A DNA stretch of 64,000 bases, taken from Candidatus Rifleibacteriota bacterium. Its GTDB lineage: Bacteria > Muiribacteriota > Ozemobacteria > Ozemobacterales > Ozemobacteraceae. The stretch is taken from the NCBI GenBank assembly GCA_012517355.1, contig JAAYVD010000023.1, positions 62,001-126,000 of the forward strand. The letters are read 5' to 3'. Numbering within the stretch: the first letter of the stretch is position 1; the number at the start of each line of letters is the position of its first letter. The notes below the pieces were generated by a model that was given only the letters and a program-made list of their open reading frames with translations, was not told where the DNA came from and made no database searches. Shown one piece after another: positions 55,281 to 63,026 of this stretch. Both the position numbers and the translations under genes were made by a program.

Positions 55281-58200
55281 TCAGACGGGTTTCGAAGGGA
55301 CGGCAGGGGAACCCGAAGTGGTCCCGGAGGAAGACGGGGAGGACGCCGTCGCGGGGGGCTCGGGAATCAACAGTATCCACAGGAGGAAGAACAGGGCGCC
55401 GGCCTGCAACCCGGAAATGTAGGCCTGCCTGGCCTGGGCGGGGATGCCCGAAAACGCCCCGAAGAACTCCTCGAGGAGGAAGACGGTCACCCCGAGCAGG
55501 ACGGTCATCAGGAATCCCGCGCTCAGACCCTTCCAGGAGTTGCGCCAGACGTCGGTCAGGGCCCAGGCCAGGAAACCGGCGACCACGAAGGACAGCAGCA
55601 ACAGGATTTCCGAGAAGACCCACTCACGGACATACAGCAGGCGCAGATGAGTCGGGCCCGAGGTCGAGACGAGCTTCTTGTTGACCACGATCTGGTTGCC
55701 GGTGGCGGGAATGGTGGGCACGACGGGCAGGACCCCGCCCATCGACCGTTCTCCCGCTCCGGCCTCCGCGGCCGTTTTCTTCATGACCGACTGGGTCATC
55801 GCGTTCGAGAGCATCTGGCGGCTCTGGCCTTCCCCGCGAACGAGGCCGGGCAGGGAGGTGATCCCGCCGGCCCCCAATTGGAAGTCGGGGCTGGCTTCCT
55901 GGATGGTGGTGCCGTCCGGCATGGAGACGATCCAGGTCAGTTCGCTGGCATCGAGGGACATGGCCGGCAGGAACAGCTCCACTTTTCCCCGTCGGGCCAT
56001 CAGGGGAACGCGACTTTCGAAGTAGATGACCACCCCGAACGGCTGCAGGACCTTGTTCACCTGCGGAGACCGGATCAGGGGTATGAACACCTCGCCCGCC
56101 TCGCCGAGGCCGGGTTTCACCGGTTCCCCGTTCAGGACCACGGAAAGCACCCTGGTCGTGGGGGGAAGCTTGTCGAGGATCAGGAACTGGTTGTTGTTGT
56201 TGCGGACGACCAGCTCGAGCTGGGTCAGGACCTTCCCGTCGCGGGAGACCAGAGACCGCGCGATCGCCCCGTCGATCTGGGCGGTGCTGACCGTCACCTC
56301 CTGGTGCTTGGTGAGACCGATGCGGGGGGTGACCCGGGCCAGGAATTTGAAGGCGAAGGCCAGGAATCCCTGGGCCTGGTCGCGGACCGCGCCCGGCAGT
56401 TCGCCCGGATCGACCATGGTTGCCGGTTGCTGGTCGAGGATGCGGGCTTCGATGCCCTCGCCCACCTCGACCCCGAAATACCCCTTCTGCCGCTCGAGCC
56501 GGGCGTGTGCCCCAGCCGACTGCATCCAGGGGATGTCCAGGGGGAACTCCCCGTTGATGGCCGGGGTGGCCCGCTCCATCTCGATGGCCAGAGAAACCTG
56601 GTCGCGCCGACGGGCATGCAGGGCCACCTTCAACTCCTGCCCCTTCGCCCCGGCAGACACGGCGCTCCAACTGGCCACATCGGGCCCGGCGACGTCCATC
56701 ACCTCGGCCCCTGGCGGAACGAGAAAGGCGAACTCGCCAACGGAATTCTGCTCGATCGTCAGGGTCACCAGATCGCGGATGGTGATGACCCCCTCGGTGA
56801 TCCCGAACAGGACGGCATGGTCGATGAACACCTTGGCTTCCTGGACGACCGGGGGTTGGGTGGCCACGACCGTCTCGGGCACCGCCGGAACGGAGGGGGC
56901 CTTGACCCGGTCGCGCCACTCGACGCGCAACAGGCTGGCGGGCTGCAGGACGGCCGCCACCCGGGTTCCGGTGGCCTGATCGAGGGTGGTCACCTGCGCG
57001 GCCGGTTCGATCTCGACGAACTGCCGGGGGCGGTCGAGAACCAGGTCGAGCTTCCCTGCCCCGAACGGGGGCAGGCCGAGAGTGAACCCCTCCTTGGCCC
57101 GGACAGCCTGTCCGCGACCCAGGAGGTCTTTCACCAGGTCGGCCTCGATGACGACACGCCCCTCCCGGTCCGTGATGATGGCGTGGCCGGGGGCCGCATC
57201 ATTCCAGGTGTTGGCCGGATCGTTGAGGGCCTGGGGGGCCATGTTCATCTGGGCGGTCTGGGCGATGTCCACCTGGCGCTGCTGCTGGGCCGCGCCCTGG
57301 GCCCATGGCCCGGCCGGAGCCCCGGCGAACGGTGGCAGGGGGGCCAGGACGGCCGGGCTGCCATCGAGGGTCAGGCTCTGGATGCCCACCTGGGAGGTCG
57401 GGAAGGGGATGGACTTGAACCCCTTCCCGAGGAGATCGGCTTCCATGCGAAGTCTCAGGATAACGACGTCGTCGTGCACCATCCCGGTCAGGGAGCAGGA
57501 GACATAGGTCACCCCCACAGGCGGCAGCCACAGGGTCGGGTCAGGCTCGGGCAGGCCGAGGTCGTGCAGGTAGCGGTAATCCTCGTATTTCAGGAAGACC
57601 AGCGGAGAATCGGTCGCCAAGCGTTCTCCCAACTGCGAGTAGGGAATGAACACATCGATGGTCTGTTCCACGCGGGGATCCTTCTCGCCCGGAGGGAGGC
57701 CCGTCGCGGCCGTCCCCGCCGCAGGAACCGCCAGCAGGAGCAGCACGGCGACGACCGTCTTCCCACCGCCGAGGACACGGAGATACGCCCACACACGCCA
57801 GAGAACGACCACCCCGAAGCAGGCGGCGATGGCCAGGAGGCCGGGATCCTGCAGGCCGGGGAACCGCTCCTCGAGGGCCAGGAGGGCGGCGGAATACCCC
57901 AGGGCCACGAGCCAGGTGAGGAATCCCCGACCACGCCGGGCCAGGGCGCGCACAACCAGGAAGACGAAGAATCCGGCGAGGGCCAAGGCCAGAGTCAGGG
58001 CGAAACGGACCGGTTCCCACAACACGAAGACCCGCAGGCTGGGGGTTTCGAGGGCGGCGATGTCGTTGCGGGTGACGAAGATCGAGTTCCCGGTGCGGGG
58101 GATGATCGGATCGACGGGGAGGGCGCCCCGGTCCCGGCCGGCCTTCATCCGTTGTTTCGGGGGTGGCGGAGCAGACGAGGAGGGGGCGGCCGCCCCGCCG

Positions 58201-60626
58201 GACGGGGACAGCGACTGGGCGGCGGGCATGTTCATGTCGTCCGCCTTCGATTTGAGCGACATGACGGACGATTCCCTCCGGACATCCTGTCGGATCCCGT
58301 CGGACAAGGCCTCCTCGTCCATCGCGATCTCCTGCTCCTGGGGTGGGGCATAGACCGAGGGCGTGGGGAGGGATGTGCCGACGGTTTCGAACATGCGGGC
58401 GGCGCGGTGGGTTCCCATCGAGGTCGTCATGGAGGCGATGAGCACGACCAGCACCCCCACCACGGCGAGGCTGCCCAGGGCACGGCCCCAGGCGAAGCCT
58501 GGCTGGTCCTGGCCGGGGGCAGGCTGGGTCACCCAGTTCCACAACCGTTTGGCCAGCCACAGAATCAGGATGAGGAGGAGCAGGAAGGGATGGGCCAGGG
58601 CCTCGCACAGTTCGGCCAGCACGGCGAACGGGTGGAAGACGGCCTTTTGGTAGACCCGCTCGACGCCGGATGGCAACAGCAGCAGCGCGTTCCATTCCGG
58701 CGCATAGACGGTCCACTCCAGGCGGCTGGTGCGGACATCCAGCTTGGGCAGAGGCACCTGCAGGTTCCGCTTCCAACCGAACTCGGGGATGGGAGCCCGG
58801 TAGGTAAGCCTGACCCGGAATGAACTGGCGGCGGACCGGCGGGCACTGCCGCCCCCCAGCGGGATCAGGTAGGAGGAATCCCCGCGGCTGGACGGCTTGA
58901 CGGGGGCGCCGTTCAACTCGGCCGAGAGGATCTCCGCACCGGAGGCCAGCCAGGTTTCGAGATACTGGCGGCCATTGTTCTTCACCTCGAGATCGAGGCT
59001 GGTCAACGCCTGCCGGTTCAACCCGAGGAAGGTGGTGGCCCGCAGGTGGTCGATCGCGGCGGTCAGGGTATCGACCTCGCTGTGCCGGATGACCTGGACG
59101 GTCACGGCCGGGTCGAAGGGAGGGGTGAAATAGCGGTAGGACAGCAGGATCGGCCGGATGGCGCGGCGGGTGAGGTCGGGCGGCAGGTCGGTCACGTCGA
59201 CCCCCGACACCTGAAGATCGGAGGAGGTTTCGGCACCCTTTCGGATCTCGATGGAGGTACGGGCCTCGACGCCGATGAAACCGGCGTCGCGCTCCACGCC
59301 TTCCAGGCGGTGGACGGGCAGGCCCACGGCCTGGCTGGTTTCGGCCATCTTGGTGTCGCAGACCATCGACAGTTCGCAGGACTGCCGGACCTGGGCAGAG
59401 AACACGCAGACGACGCGGGTGGCGGTGGCCAGGGCCTCGATCCGGTGACTTTCCAGGTTGGGCGACTGCAGGTCCAGCAGTTCGGTGCCCGACGGCAGGA
59501 GGAGGGAGATCCCGTCGATCCCGGAGCGGGCGATGCGCAGCCGGATCTGGGCCTCGGAGCGGATGAACCCTTCGCCGACCGAGAGCAGGGTGGCGCTGTC
59601 GGCGTAGACCCTGGGGGGTTCCGGGGGTGCGGCGGGGACGGCATCCGGCTCCGGAGGGGTACCGGTGGCGGAGTCGGGGGCGGTCTCTTCGGGCTGCCGG
59701 TCGGCGGGGGGCTCGATGACGCCGGCCCCGGACCGGGGCGCCCAGCGGACGGTGAACCGGTCGGTGGGACCGAGAACCCCTTCGACCACGGTATGCCCGT
59801 CGTCGTCGCGGCAGCGGGTTCCTTCGGACCGGTCGACCTCCCCGAACTGGCCAGGAGTATCGAGGGTTACGGCGAAGGTGTTCATGGGCATGCGGGGGAT
59901 GCGGAAGGTCAGTTCGTTGCGTTCGGGGTCATCGACCTGGGGGCAGACCAGGACGACCTTCACGGTGTGCCGGCCGACCCCGCGGACGGCGAGGAGGAAA
60001 TCGTTGGAGGCGCCGCGGCGGCCGGAGACCAGGGCGGAGCGGCGGACGGCCGCGGCAGGCGCTTTCCGCTTCTGCTGCAGGATCTCCACGTTGCCCTTGG
60101 GGGCCTCAGGGTCCTGGATTCCGGAGAATCGGTTCACGGTCACGCCGACCGGCCTGCCGTCGAGGGTCACCTGCTCGAGGCCGATGTCCCCGCCGGGCAG
60201 GGGGAACAGGGCCCACCGGTCGTTGGGCATTTCGAAGACGAACTCGGCCTCGAACCGGCCCACCTTTTCGGAGATGGTCCCGGTGAAGGTCGACCGGCCC
60301 TGGACAAAATCCGCATCGAGCCGGGGTTGCGGGCTGGCGGGGGTACGGGCCAGAAAGGCTTCCTTGTCCCGTTTGAGGCGTTCGAATTCGGCGCGTGGGA
60401 TGAGCATCCCCCGCGGGTTCGCCTGCCAGGTCTCCTCCAGGTCGGTGAACGGGATGTAGCGGACGTTGGCCGACAACCGCCCGCCGCTGACGGCCGGGGC
60501 GGCGAACGGTTCGGGGGCCGCCGGGTCGTTCTGGGCGACCAGGACGGGGCAAAACATTCCCACCAGACCCGCCACCAGGATGAGCATGCACCAGCCGGCA
60601 CGGCTGGACCATCGGATTCCCGACAT
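55281..60626 (-). CDS. giant duplicated membrane/periplasmic protein (1781 aa)
   Basis: ATG 60626 has GGGGGAGG upstream and starts a signal peptide; the track start is 31 codons earlier. The protein has two related halves. Matching blocks include VRYIPFTDLEETW / IDVFIPYSQLGERL, GFIGVEARTSIEIR / GYFGVEVGEGIEAR, SAELNGAPVKPSSRG / SVVLNGEPVKPGLGE and IIPRTGNSIFVTRND / TIPATGNQIVVNKKL. Each half is a large beta-rich periplasmic part followed by membrane helices. Around residue ~954 a second signal-peptide-like stretch (KTVVAVLLLLAVPAAGTAA) begins the second half, pointing to fusion of two tandem genes. I know no name for the family. It has its own promoter and lies downstream of two pilT-like genes on the same strand. 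Confidence 0.8.
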   Translation of the reverse strand: MSGIRWSSRAGWCMLILVAGLVGMFCPVLVAQNDPAAPEPFAAPAVSGGRLSANVRYIPFTDLEETWQANPRGMLIPRAEFERLKRDKEAFLARTPASPQPRLDADFVQGRSTFTGTISEKVGRFEAEFVFEMPNDRWALFPLPGGDIGLEQVTLDGRPVGVTVNRFSGIQDPEAPKGNVEILQQKRKAPAAAVRRSALVSGRRGASNDFLLAVRGVGRHTVKVVLVCPQVDDPERNELTFRIPRMPMNTFAVTLDTPGQFGEVDRSEGTRCRDDDGHTVVEGVLGPTDRFTVRWAPRSGAGVIEPPADRQPEETAPDSATGTPPEPDAVPAAPPEPPRVYADSATLLSVGEGFIRSEAQIRLRIARSGIDGISLLLPSGTELLDLQSPNLESHRIEALATATRVVCVFSAQVRQSCELSMVCDTKMAETSQAVGLPVHRLEGVERDAGFIGVEARTSIEIRKGAETSSDLQVSGVDVTDLPPDLTRRAIRPILLSYRYFTPPFDPAVTVQVIRHSEVDTLTAAIDHLRATTFLGLNRQALTSLDLEVKNNGRQYLETWLASGAEILSAELNGAPVKPSSRGDSSYLIPLGGGSARRSAASSFRVRLTYRAPIPEFGWKRNLQVPLPKLDVRTSRLEWTVYAPEWNALLLLPSGVERVYQKAVFHPFAVLAELCEALAHPFLLLLILILWLAKRLWNWVTQPAPGQDQPGFAWGRALGSLAVVGVLVVLIASMTTSMGTHRAARMFETVGTSLPTPSVYAPPQEQEIAMDEEALSDGIRQDVRRESSVMSLKSKADDMNMPAAQSLSPSGGAAAPSSSAPPPPKQRMKAGRDRGALPVDPIIPRTGNSIFVTRNDIAALETPSLRVFVLWEPVRFALTLALALAGFFVFLVVRALARRGRGFLTWLVALGYSAALLALEERFPGLQDPGLLAIAACFGVVVLWRVWAYLRVLGGGKTVVAVLLLLAVPAAGTAATGLPPGEKDPRVEQTIDVFIPYSQLGERLATDSPLVFLKYEDYRYLHDLGLPEPDPTLWLPPVGVTYVSCSLTGMVHDDVVILRLRMEADLLGKGFKSIPFPTSQVGIQSLTLDGSPAVLAPLPPFAGAPAGPWAQGAAQQQRQVDIAQTAQMNMAPQALNDPANTWNDAAPGHAIITDREGRVVIEADLVKDLLGRGQAVRAKEGFTLGLPPFGAGKLDLVLDRPRQFVEIEPAAQVTTLDQATGTRVAAVLQPASLLRVEWRDRVKAPSVPAVPETVVATQPPVVQEAKVFIDHAVLFGITEGVITIRDLVTLTIEQNSVGEFAFLVPPGAEVMDVAGPDVASWSAVSAGAKGQELKVALHARRRDQVSLAIEMERATPAINGEFPLDIPWMQSAGAHARLERQKGYFGVEVGEGIEARILDQQPATMVDPGELPGAVRDQAQGFLAFAFKFLARVTPRIGLTKHQEVTVSTAQIDGAIARSLVSRDGKVLTQLELVVRNNNNQFLILDKLPPTTRVLSVVLNGEPVKPGLGEAGEVFIPLIRSPQVNKVLQPFGVVIYFESRVPLMARRGKVELFLPAMSLDASELTWIVSMPDGTTIQEASPDFQLGAGGITSLPGLVRGEGQSRQMLSNAMTQSVMKKTAAEAGAGERSMGGVLPVVPTIPATGNQIVVNKKLVSTSGPTHLRLLYVREWVFSEILLLLSFVVAGFLAWALTDVWRNSWKGLSAGFLMTVLLGVTVFLLEEFFGAFSGIPAQARQAYISGLQAGALFFLLWILLIPEPPATASSPSSSGTTSGSPAVPSKPV

Positions 60627-60689
60627 TCTGGGCACCTCCCCCTCTCTTGTCTGGAGCCGATGTATCAGAACCCGGCTCTCTACCGGACG

Positions 60690-60719
60690 ATGGTAGGTTC
60701 CCCACGGGGGGTTTGTCAA
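60690..60719 (-). promoter_or_regulatory. promoter of the 1781-aa gene
   Basis: On the minus strand: TTGACA, 18 bp, TACCAT; predicted leader ~55 nt. Confidence 0.75.
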
Positions 60720-60779
60720 ACGCGGCGCGCCGGTTTCTACCCGGGGTCGTCCGCCCAGGCGGGGGGAATCCGCGGGGCC

Positions 60780-61826
60780 CTACCTTCCCTCGATCTTCAG
60801 CTCGGGAGGCACATCCGAGGATTTGACCTGGCCGGACTTCACCAGTTCCTGGATGGAGAGGTACATGGGAATGCAGCCGGACCGCCGACCCACCCGCAGG
60901 ATGGAGCTGATCTCGTGGATCTTTTTCTGGCGGATGAGGTTGCAGACCGAGGGGGGCATGGGCAGGACCTCGAAAGCCAGGGCGCGCCCCTTGCGGCTGG
61001 CCAGGGGGATCAGGGTTTGGGAGAGGATGACCTTCAGGCAGCTGGAGAGCATGAACCGGATGGTGTCGCGTTGGTGGGAGGGGAAGATATTGATGAGGCG
61101 CAGGATGCTCTGGGTGGCGTCGGCGGTGTGCAGGGTCCCCACCACCAGGTGGCCGGTCTCGGCGGCTTTCAGGCAGGTTTCGACGGTTTCCTGGTCACGC
61201 AGCTCGCCGATGAACAGGACGTCGGGGTCCTGACGCAAGGCAGCGGTGAGGCCACGGTGGAACGTGGTGGCGTCCTCCCCGACCTGCCTCTGGCTGACGA
61301 TCGAATGCTGGTAGGTCCCGAACAGGTACTCGACCGGGTCTTCGATGGTGATGATGTGGAGGGAATTTTCCTGGGCCAGGGTATCGATGAGGCTGGCCGC
61401 GGTGGTCGACTTTCCCGAGTTGGTCGCCCCGGTGATGAGGACCATTCCCCGGGTGGCCTTCTTCAGCAGGTCGATGGCCTCTTTCGAGAAGCCGAGCTGT
61501 CCGAGGGCCGGCGGCTTCCCTGGAATGAGGCGCAGCGAAAGGGCCAGACTGTTCCGCTGCAGGAAGATGTTGGCGCGGGCCCGGAACCCGTTGACCAGTT
61601 CAAAGGAGCAGTCGATCTGCCCGCGGGCCTTGAAGGACTGCAGGCGCCGTTCGTCGAGGACCTGGACCACCAGGCGCTCCAGATCCTTGGGGGAGGAGGG
61701 AGGGAACTCGAGACGCCGGATCTCGTCGGCGACCCGCACGATCGGGGGAAAGGCCGCCTTGAGGTGCACGTCGTGGGCGCCCAGTTCCAGGGCCTTGGTC
61801 ACGATCTGGTTGAGCGTGTCGATCAT
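60780..61826 (-). CDS. PilT-like type IV pilus retraction ATPase (downstream copy)
   Basis: 348 residues. N-terminal domain ALELGAHDVHLKAAFPPIVRV; Walker A GATNSGKST, where Asn replaces the usual Gly but GxxxxGKS is kept; ITIEDPVEYLF (Asp box), LRQDPDVLFIGELRDQETVETCLKAAETGHLVVGTLHTADA (Walker B and His box). Near the end, PSVCNLIRQKKIHEI takes the place of the PilT AIRNLIRE motif, which is needed for retraction. Cytoplasmic hexamer powering pilus disassembly. It overlaps the upstream pilT-like gene by 4 bp (ATGA), and the giant membrane protein gene follows with its own promoter. Confidence 0.92.
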   Translation of the reverse strand: MIDTLNQIVTKALELGAHDVHLKAAFPPIVRVADEIRRLEFPPSSPKDLERLVVQVLDERRLQSFKARGQIDCSFELVNGFRARANIFLQRNSLALSLRLIPGKPPALGQLGFSKEAIDLLKKATRGMVLITGATNSGKSTTAASLIDTLAQENSLHIITIEDPVEYLFGTYQHSIVSQRQVGEDATTFHRGLTAALRQDPDVLFIGELRDQETVETCLKAAETGHLVVGTLHTADATQSILRLINIFPSHQRDTIRFMLSSCLKVILSQTLIPLASRKGRALAFEVLPMPPSVCNLIRQKKIHEISSILRVGRRSGCIPMYLSIQELVKSGQVKSSDVPPELKIEGR

Positions 61827-62899
61827 AGGATCCCCTTCCGTTCGAACCGCGAGAGCAGGGCTTCAGGATCGGGGCTGTAGGGGAAGGCCTGATCCGAGTC
61901 GATGAGCCGGCCGACCACCATCTCCTCCAGGGTGGAATTCATCGAGACCATACCCGAATCGGTGGCATTCTCGAGGAACATGGGGATCTGCTCGTGCTTC
62001 TCGTTGCGGATCAGGCTCGAGATGCCGGAATTGTTGATCAGGATCTCGCGGGCGGCCAGCCGGACGGCGGGGTCCTTCCTGGCCGGGATCAGGGCCTGGG
62101 CGACGATGCCGATCAGGACCGCGGCCAGCTGGTCGCGGACGAACTCGCGCGCGTCGGCGGGGAACATGCCCAGGAGGCGGGCCACTGCCGAAGCCGTGCT
62201 GCTGGCGTGCAGGGCGGAGATGACCAGATGGCCGGTCTCGGCGGCGGTCATCGCCAGTTCGACGGTCTCGCTCTCCCGCATCTCGCCCACCATGATGATG
62301 TCCGGGTCCTGGCGCAGGGTCGCGCGCAGGGCTTCGGGAAAACTGGTGAAGTCGCGCCGCAGTTCCCGCTGGAGGAATTCGCCCTTCTCGTCGCGGAACA
62401 AGAATTCGATGGGGTCCTCCAGGGTGACGATGCGGACCTGGTGGCTGGCGTTGATGTGCTGCAGAAGGGCGGCAATCGTGGTGCTCTTGCCCGACCCGGT
62501 CGGGCCGCAGAGGAGGAACAGGCCGGCCGGCCGTTGGACGGCTTCGATGACGACCGTGGGGATCTTGACCGAGTCGATGGTGGGCAGGCTGAAGGGGATC
62601 TGCCGGAAGACGAAGGCCAGTCGCCCCTTTTGATGGAAGCAGTTGACCCGAAACCGGCTGACCCCCGGCAGGGAGACGGAATAGTCGACGTCCCTCTGGG
62701 TGTCGAGCAACTTGTGGGTGGCGGGGGGGGCGGTTTTTTCGAAAAACCGCTTCAGAACGTCGTTCTCCAAGGGAAGCCCCGAGGTGATCTGAATCTTCCC
62801 GGCAACCCGGTAGACCGGTGGGAGTCCGGCCCGCAGATGCACATCCGAAGCGCCCAGTTTCTTGCACTGGGACAGGATTTCCGCCAGTTGCTCGTCCAT
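61823..62899 (-). CDS. PilT/PilU-like type IV pilus ATPase (upstream copy)
   Basis: 358 residues from ATG 62899 (AGAGGGGAAGG upstream; the track adds 37 residues). N-terminus ILSQCKKLGASDVHLRAGLPPVYRVAG, Walker A GPTGSGKST, IVTLEDPIEFLF, LRQDPDIIMVGEMRESETVELAMTAAETGHLVISALHASS. In the Walker B region RESET replaces the usual RDxET, and the His-box Thr is Ala. SGISSLIRNEKHEQI corresponds to the AIRNLIRE region, and MVSMNSTLEEMV resembles the PilT C-terminal MxTxxxSL helix. Two unequal PilT homologues in tandem recall PilT-PilU. With pseudopilin operons elsewhere in the window, a functional pilus machine in this organism is likely. Confidence 0.92.
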   Translation of the reverse strand: MDEQLAEILSQCKKLGASDVHLRAGLPPVYRVAGKIQITSGLPLENDVLKRFFEKTAPPATHKLLDTQRDVDYSVSLPGVSRFRVNCFHQKGRLAFVFRQIPFSLPTIDSVKIPTVVIEAVQRPAGLFLLCGPTGSGKSTTIAALLQHINASHQVRIVTLEDPIEFLFRDEKGEFLQRELRRDFTSFPEALRATLRQDPDIIMVGEMRESETVELAMTAAETGHLVISALHASSTASAVARLLGMFPADAREFVRDQLAAVLIGIVAQALIPARKDPAVRLAAREILINNSGISSLIRNEKHEQIPMFLENATDSGMVSMNSTLEEMVVGRLIDSDQAFPYSPDPEALLSRFERKGIL

Positions 62900-63026
62900 G
62901 CCTTCCCCTCTCTGGGCCGCCGGATGATCGCCGGGCCCATGCGAAACCGGCCGTTCTTTCTGGTATCGGTCGAATTGGTTGCCGGCCTGAGCCGGCGTCA
63001 CCCCTCCCATTCCGGCTCCTCCTGCT

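What the first reader, a model, noticed from the sequence alone, without database searches (positions are those of the whole stretch)
55281..62899. 1781-residue duplicated membrane protein next to a tandem PilT pair
The protein consists of two homologous halves, each a large periplasmic part followed by membrane helices. A second signal-peptide-like segment at ~954 marks where two ancestral genes were joined. It follows two pilT-like genes on the same strand. A partner in a pilus or gliding machine is possible. The family is unknown to me.
Basis: partly seen in the sequence, partly recalled or inferred. Interest (0 to 1): 0.65.

Follow-up and report, generated by a model that had tools for sequence, protein, structure and literature searches.

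The report
Twin-half envelope protein beside pilT
A very large bacterial membrane protein that really is two related copies joined end to end, from a widespread but undescribed family in which such pairing arose several times; the pilus-motor genes beside it appear to be chance neighbours, not partners.

Summary
The 55281-60626(-) ORF encodes 1781 aa. Its halves align at E=3e-28 (108 bits; 100 shuffles max 25.8). Each half has periplasm-type beta-sandwich domains, then C-terminal membrane helices, and a second signal-peptide-like segment at ~958-976 marks the join. The organism is a Candidatus Ozemobacter relative (Riflebacteria). The family is absent from Pfam and NCBIfam. It occurs in 32/40 searched genomes of the phylum and in 24 genomes from other phyla, as single genes, overlapping tandem pairs, fused doubles or four-unit giants. 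A single ancient duplication is rejected (AU p~1e-128), so pairing arose repeatedly. Junction helices carry signal-peptidase-I-like motifs like those of N-terminal signal peptides (p=2e-7 against other helices). I infer a fused pair, probably cut into two equimolar subunits. The pilus reading is not supported for this protein: the pilT genes belong to a conserved pilT-pilT-adenylate cyclase operon, usually not linked to this family; the window genome has lost its third gene, and the big ORF has its own conserved promoter. One twist: the genome's paralogue carries an embedded type IV prepilin segment, degenerate in the window protein. The fold search points to ribophorin I/OST1, without sequence support.

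The parts
55281..60626 (-). 1781-aa two-unit membrane protein (window-type member of the family)
   Evidence: ORF; half-to-half alignment; orthologues at 33-59% identity over nearly the whole length
60534..60590 (-). N-terminal signal peptide core (aa 13-31)
   Evidence: hydropathy
58692..59618 (-). half A conserved ~307-aa unit (aa 337-645)
   Evidence: HMM built from both halves
58425..58610 (-). helix pair of half A (aa 673-734); the second helix sits where the paralogue carries a prepilin-like segment
57771..58016 (-). three-helix block ending half A (about aa 871-952)
57699..57755 (-). internal signal-peptide-like segment (aa 958-976, VVAVLLLLAVPAAGTAATG), possible signal peptidase I cut after A973 or A974
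   Evidence: hydropathy; motif test across 33 junctions
55911..56840 (-). half B conserved ~307-aa unit (aa 1263-1572)
55365..55622 (-). three C-terminal helices of half B (aa 1669-1754)
60690..60719 (-). sigma-70-like promoter TTGACA-18-TACCAT of the big ORF
   Evidence: similar promoters before the orthologues in L036 (7109-7137) and L037 (5736-5765)
60780..61826 (-). PilT/PilU-family ATPase, second of the tandem pair (neighbour, not part of the system)
   Evidence: TIGR01420
61823..62899 (-). PilT/PilU-family ATPase, first of the tandem pair (neighbour; ORF opens at 63010, orthologues start at 62899)
   Evidence: TIGR01420

Best explanation
The ORF encodes two paralogous, membrane-anchored envelope proteins (A and B) made as one chain. 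Each has a tandem of beta-sandwich domains outside the inner membrane and a helical anchor at its C-terminal end. The hydrophobic segment at ~958-976 is the former signal peptide of B: it re-initiates export after the last helix of A. In most members it still looks cleavable by signal peptidase I, so the chain is probably cut into A and B in a 1:1 ratio, which then work together as a heterodimeric, non-enzymatic scaffold or receptor in the envelope. SHOWN: homology of the halves, even unit number in most intact fused proteins, separate and overlapping tandem genes elsewhere, repeated independent pairing, signal-peptide-like junctions, an own promoter, and no conserved pil linkage. INFERRED: periplasmic location, cleavage, the A-B complex, and a scaffold or receptor role (no catalytic motif or enzyme family found).
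For: Half alignment E=3e-28, shuffle control. The unit HMM finds 95 copies in 49 proteins, with 2 or 4 copies in most intact fused proteins. Elsewhere: separate adjacent genes, some overlapping by a few bases (L114, L115, L116, L117), and single genes in eight genomes (L123-L130), all. One common duplication rejected, p-AU 1.9e-128, with A and B of the Ozemobacteraceae already separate in the best tree. Junction helices score like N-terminal signal peptides (medians 4.7 and 4.98) and above the other helices (2.36), Mann-Whitney p=1.8e-7. Beta-sandwich models. Own promoter in three species.
Against: Cleavage is not shown. In the window protein the junction motif is moderate (score 4.4), some junctions lack a good motif, and my motif score is a home-made two-position matrix. 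Models are medium confidence (pLDDT 71 and 69, shallow alignments). Some multi-unit members show only one full unit per gene with extra half-units (L060, L062, L099), so 'always in pairs' is a tendency, not a rule. No experimental data were found for any member. Location and scaffold role rest on architecture alone.
Confidence: 0.5

Rival explanations
1. A single uncut ten-helix membrane protein: the internal signal-like segment is simply another transmembrane helix, and both beta-regions stay on one chain as a large receptor or scaffold.
For: The helix count gives a consistent topology without cleavage. The window's own junction motif is only moderate. Half A ends in its own three-helix block, so a linker helix is needed anyway.
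Against: Junction segments score like N-terminal signal peptides and differ from the other helices of the same proteins. Many have clear A-X-A ends, e.g. FPLGAQA|QE in Ozemobacter sibiricus and ATLPAFA|QE in L049.
Confidence: 0.3
2. A partner of a type IV pilus or gliding machine, working with the adjacent PilT pair.
For: Same strand, directly downstream of two PilT-family genes. The paralogue and its orthologues carry a prepilin-like segment in the middle (TIGR02532 above its cut-off in L034, L048, L049; PDB pilins at E=6e-7 with the half-1 profile). That segment is 54% identical to a free pilin gene lying next to a PilT-family ATPase hit in the own genome (C74). The genome has prepilin peptidases.
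Against: PilT is near the big ORF in 3 of 8 orthologous loci, all in one clade. The conserved partner of the pair is a cyclase. Own promoter. No pilT match in the 20 loci from other phyla. The window protein has no recognisable pilin motif.
Confidence: 0.12
3. A sensor or scaffold for cyclic-AMP signalling: family members in this bacterial family often sit beside a GAF or zinc-ribbon class III cyclase.
For: Cyclase genes flank the big ORF in O. sibiricus and G010 and follow the paralogue in L044, L046, L049 and L070.
Against: The genome holds 87 cyclase domain matches, so a neighbouring cyclase is expected often by chance. The window genome lacks the nearby cyclase.
Confidence: 0.08
4. A bacterial relative of ribophorin I/OST1, i.e. 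a chaperone-like subunit of a membrane enzyme complex.
For: Best Foldseek matches of both halves, run separately, are OST1/ribophorin I (E=1.9e-9 and 1.6e-8, probability 1.00), followed by integrin alpha and M1 aminopeptidase-type beta domains.
Against: TM-scores are low (at most ~0.3 by target). No Ribophorin_I profile match in the own genome, no matching chain in profile searches of PDB sequences, no STT3 in four genomes. It may be a generic multi-beta-sandwich resemblance.
Confidence: 0.05

Closest known systems
Ribophorin I / OST1 luminal region (PF04597)
   Same: Predicted fold: chain of beta-sandwiches ahead of a C-terminal membrane anchor; best PDB match for both halves
   Different: No sequence-level match, no oligosaccharyltransferase catalytic subunit in the genome; paired units, several helices per anchor
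PilT/PilU type IV pilus retraction ATPases (TIGR01420)
   Same: They are the neighbours upstream
   Different: Separate conserved unit with a class III cyclase; linkage to the big ORF confined to one clade
Type IV pilins / GspG pseudopilins
   Same: The paralogue has an embedded segment with a GFxxxE-type cleavage motif, N-terminal helix and a Cys-containing pilin-like region
   Different: In the window protein only a degenerate helix remains; pilins are small single proteins
Integrin alpha ectodomain, inter-alpha-inhibitor heavy chain, M1 aminopeptidase N-domain (by fold only)
   Same: Multi-domain beta-sandwich architecture
   Different: No sequence similarity found; no enzymatic domain

Membership tests
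Type IV pilus / gliding machine component | Conserved genomic linkage with pil genes across relatives | tested here: not met
   3 of 8 orthologous loci, one clade; none in 20 loci of other phyla
Type IV pilus / gliding machine component | Recognisable T4P domain in the protein itself | tested here: not met
   No Pfam or NCBIfam match for the 1781-aa protein; degenerate helix only
Type IV pilus / gliding machine component | Effect on piliation or motility | not testable with these tools
   needs a mutant
PilT/PilU family (the two neighbours) | TIGR01420 above curated cut-off; Walker A, Asp box | tested here: met
   369 and 368 bits against 319.1; GATNSGKST / GPTGSGKST and GELRD / GEMRE
Ribophorin I / OST1 | Match to the Ribophorin_I profile PF04597 | tested here: not met
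   no match at E<=10 in the own genome; no Pfam match
Ribophorin I / OST1 | Fold of the luminal domains | tested here: inconclusive
   Foldseek E 1e-8 to 1e-9, probability 1.00, but low TM-scores and medium-confidence models
Ribophorin I / OST1 | Co-occurrence with STT3 | tested here: not met
   0 of 4 genomes
Type IV prepilin (embedded segment of the paralogue, not the window protein) | GFxxxE cleavage/methylation motif above TIGR02532 cut-off | tested here: met
   L034 16.4, L048 20.7, L049 23.1 bits against 16.3; lost in L067, L057
Two-unit family described here | Two copies of the ~307-aa unit in one intact chain | tested here: met
   unit HMM E=4e-104 and 5e-94

The most novel reading that the evidence does not exclude
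A bacterial polyprotein: one gene makes two exported membrane proteins joined through a still-functional internal signal peptide, which signal peptidase I cuts to give an equimolar heterodimer. This arrangement evolved several times from tandem genes, and one sister lineage additionally took up a whole prepilin at a place where prepilin peptidase could cut it.
Probability: 0.3. Interest if true: 0.65.

Novelty: new variant of a known kind. Interest (0 to 1): 0.5.

Why it matters
The family is large, widespread and unnamed: it is in 32 of 40 genomes searched of the phylum and in 24 genomes of other phyla, with no Pfam or NCBIfam entry. Its repeated, independent conversion from tandem genes to fused pairs suggests that the two subunits must be made together, which makes a heterodimer a concrete, testable prediction. 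If the internal signal peptide is cut, it would be a clear natural case of polyprotein processing by signal peptidase I in a free-living bacterium. It also shows how a tempting operon reading (pilT + giant membrane protein) can arise from loss of one gene between two unrelated transcription units.

Tried and rejected
Pfam and NCBIfam scans of the window protein and Pfam scans of 18 diverse members: nothing. Unit alignment A1 as a genome-contig query: too divergent; the closer A2 worked. pilT linkage as evidence for a pilus role: rejected. G011 has a PilB-type ATPase near its family member, but with radical SAM, chemotaxis-type and microcompartment-type genes around it, not a pil operon. A strict A-X-A count at junctions was not significant (p=0.14); a two-position signal peptidase motif score was, so both are reported. 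Remnant of the missing cyclase in the window: none found. Ribophorin homology by sequence: none. A DNA alignment of upstream regions did not bring the promoters into register. Alignment A6 had a mis-framed window row and is not used. Literature on Riflebacteria/Ozemobacter did not turn up this family (one paper opened).

Full report
OBSERVATION. The minus-strand ORF 55281-60626 encodes 1781 aa starting at an ATG preceded by a purine-rich ribosome-binding-like stretch. Its halves are homologous: 24% identity over ~570 residues, E=3e-28, plus a second block around LPVxPxIPxTGN and the following helices. The score is 108 bits against at most 25.8 in 100 shuffles. Helices lie at 13-31, 673-691, 716-734, 877-895, 924-947, 958-976, 1669-1687, 1700-1718 and 1736-1754; the model adds a helix near 901-921. 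The two upstream genes are PilT/PilU-family ATPases above the curated cut-off.

WHERE IT COMES FROM. Relatives with names are Candidatus Ozemobacter sibiricus, other Ozemobacteraceae and other Riflebacteria; the genome in which the window lies is in the same genus as the O. sibiricus assembly. The genome holds one further two-unit paralogue, on contig C124, 28% identical.

FAMILY. A profile made from the two halves and refined on relatives defines a ~307-aa unit, 95 copies in 49 proteins. With unit alignment A1, 32 of 40 genomes of the phylum and 24 of the genomes from other phyla have it. Pfam scans of 18 diverse members find no domain family. Architectures: single genes of 660-830 aa (L123-L130); two adjacent genes, some overlapping by a few bases (L051, L112-L118); fused doubles (window, C124 type, L053, L054, L065, L119-L122); four-unit proteins of ~2800-3165 aa (L052, L059, L063, L064); and in L068/L069 the four-unit protein split as 2+2. 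Some members add extra copies of the first half-unit (L060, L062, L099, L131).

REPEATED PAIRING. In a tree of 72 units, A of the window type and A of the C124 type form one clade (99/96), and the B units form two separate clades. The two halves of L119 are each other's sisters (99/92), and so are the two genes of L112/L113 (100/98). Forcing all first units against all second units costs 171 log-likelihood units (p-AU 1.9e-128). Duplication therefore happened more than once, and fusion too; long branches limit the finer detail.

THE JUNCTION. At 33 A/B junctions the last helix before the next half was scored for a signal peptidase I site by a simple -3/-1 matrix. The median was 4.7, against 4.98 for N-terminal signal peptides and 2.36 for 289 other helices of the same proteins, p=1.8e-7. 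A strict A-X-A count alone was not significant. The window's own site (VPAAGTAA|TG) scores 4.4; O. sibiricus has a clear FPLGAQA|QE. This fits a retained internal signal peptide. Cleavage itself is inferred.

NEIGHBOURS. The pilT pair is part of a three-gene unit, pilT2-pilT1-class III cyclase, in eight relatives (cyclase identified as PF00211 plus zinc ribbon). In five of them (G003, G007, G008, G014, G017) it is not beside the big ORF. In O. sibiricus and G010 it lies directly upstream; in G002 the contig ends inside the cyclase. In the window genome the cyclase orthologue is gone (best remaining match 33%; no remnant), so pilT1 now abuts the big gene. In G004 the order HDIG, big ORF, PEPCK, clpX-like is kept with no pilT. 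A TTGACA-17/18-TASCAT promoter lies about 40-65 bases before the big ORF in the window, O. sibiricus and G004 (about 0 expected by chance in each). So the big ORF is probably its own transcription unit and its link with pilT is secondary.

THE PILIN TWIST. The C124-type paralogue and its orthologues carry, after a membrane helix, a segment like TGKGFRLAELMIVVxxxGxLxAxAxPNFRKAREQARxKACYANQRVL. It exceeds the NCBIfam GFxxxE cut-off in L034, L048 and L049, and the half-1 profile built from these rows finds solved type IV pilins at E=6e-7. The site is placed where prepilin peptidase would expect it, and the genome has prepilin peptidases. A free pilin 54% identical lies next to a PilT-family match on C74. 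In the window type only a degenerate helix is left (PGFAWGRALGSLAVVGVLVVLIASM), with no pilin match.

STRUCTURE. AlphaFold models (pLDDT 71.3 for half 2, 68.9 for half 1) show beta-sandwich chains followed by helices. Best PDB matches for both, searched separately, are OST1/ribophorin I (E=1.9e-9, 1.6e-8), then integrin alpha, inter-alpha-inhibitor heavy chain and M1 aminopeptidase-type domains. TM-scores are low, there is no sequence match and STT3 is absent in four genomes. I treat this as a resemblance of fold only.

MECHANISM. Most likely the gene makes two membrane-anchored envelope proteins in equal amounts, either cut at the internal signal peptide (preferred) or left joined, that act together as a non-enzymatic scaffold or receptor. 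A pilus role is not excluded for the family, because of the pilin segment in the paralogue, but it is not supported for this protein. Function remains untested as far as I could find; the literature searches here found no description.

Noticed in passing
own genome G000, all contigs: 87 class III adenylate/guanylate cyclase domain matches (PF00211, E<=0.001) in one bacterial genome of 7.1 Mb, many in pairs inside ORFs of 2000-2700 aa. Unusually high count.
   Followed up: no
L034:6849-12488(-) (own genome C124) and orthologues L045, L046, L047, L048, L049, L055: Paralogue with a prepilin-like segment embedded in the middle of a ~1850-aa membrane protein; usual neighbours are a TrkA-type potassium channel upstream and an M50B-type membrane peptidase downstream.
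   Followed up: partly
L036, L075-L081: Conserved three-gene unit pilT-pilT-class III cyclase in Ozemobacteraceae, linking pilus retraction ATPases with cyclic nucleotide synthesis.
   Followed up: partly
G000:C74:15459-16973(+): PilT-family ATPase followed by a small pilin gene whose sequence is 54% identical to the segment embedded in the paralogue; the same arrangement in G001 (C45) and G017 (C6).
   Followed up: no
L040:8326-10929(-): Bacterial major-vault-protein-like gene (MVP shoulder domain, E=2.8e-29) near the orthologue in G003.
   Followed up: no
L099:7248-16618(+): Chthoniobacteraceae contig (Verrucomicrobiota) with three consecutive family genes, each with extra half-units.
   Followed up: no
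G000:C54:7207-7527 and G000:C57:6473-8116: Large ORFs (720-870 aa) that match the globular part of the pilin-like segment without its helix, some in several copies; possibly a mobile Cys-containing domain.
   Followed up: no
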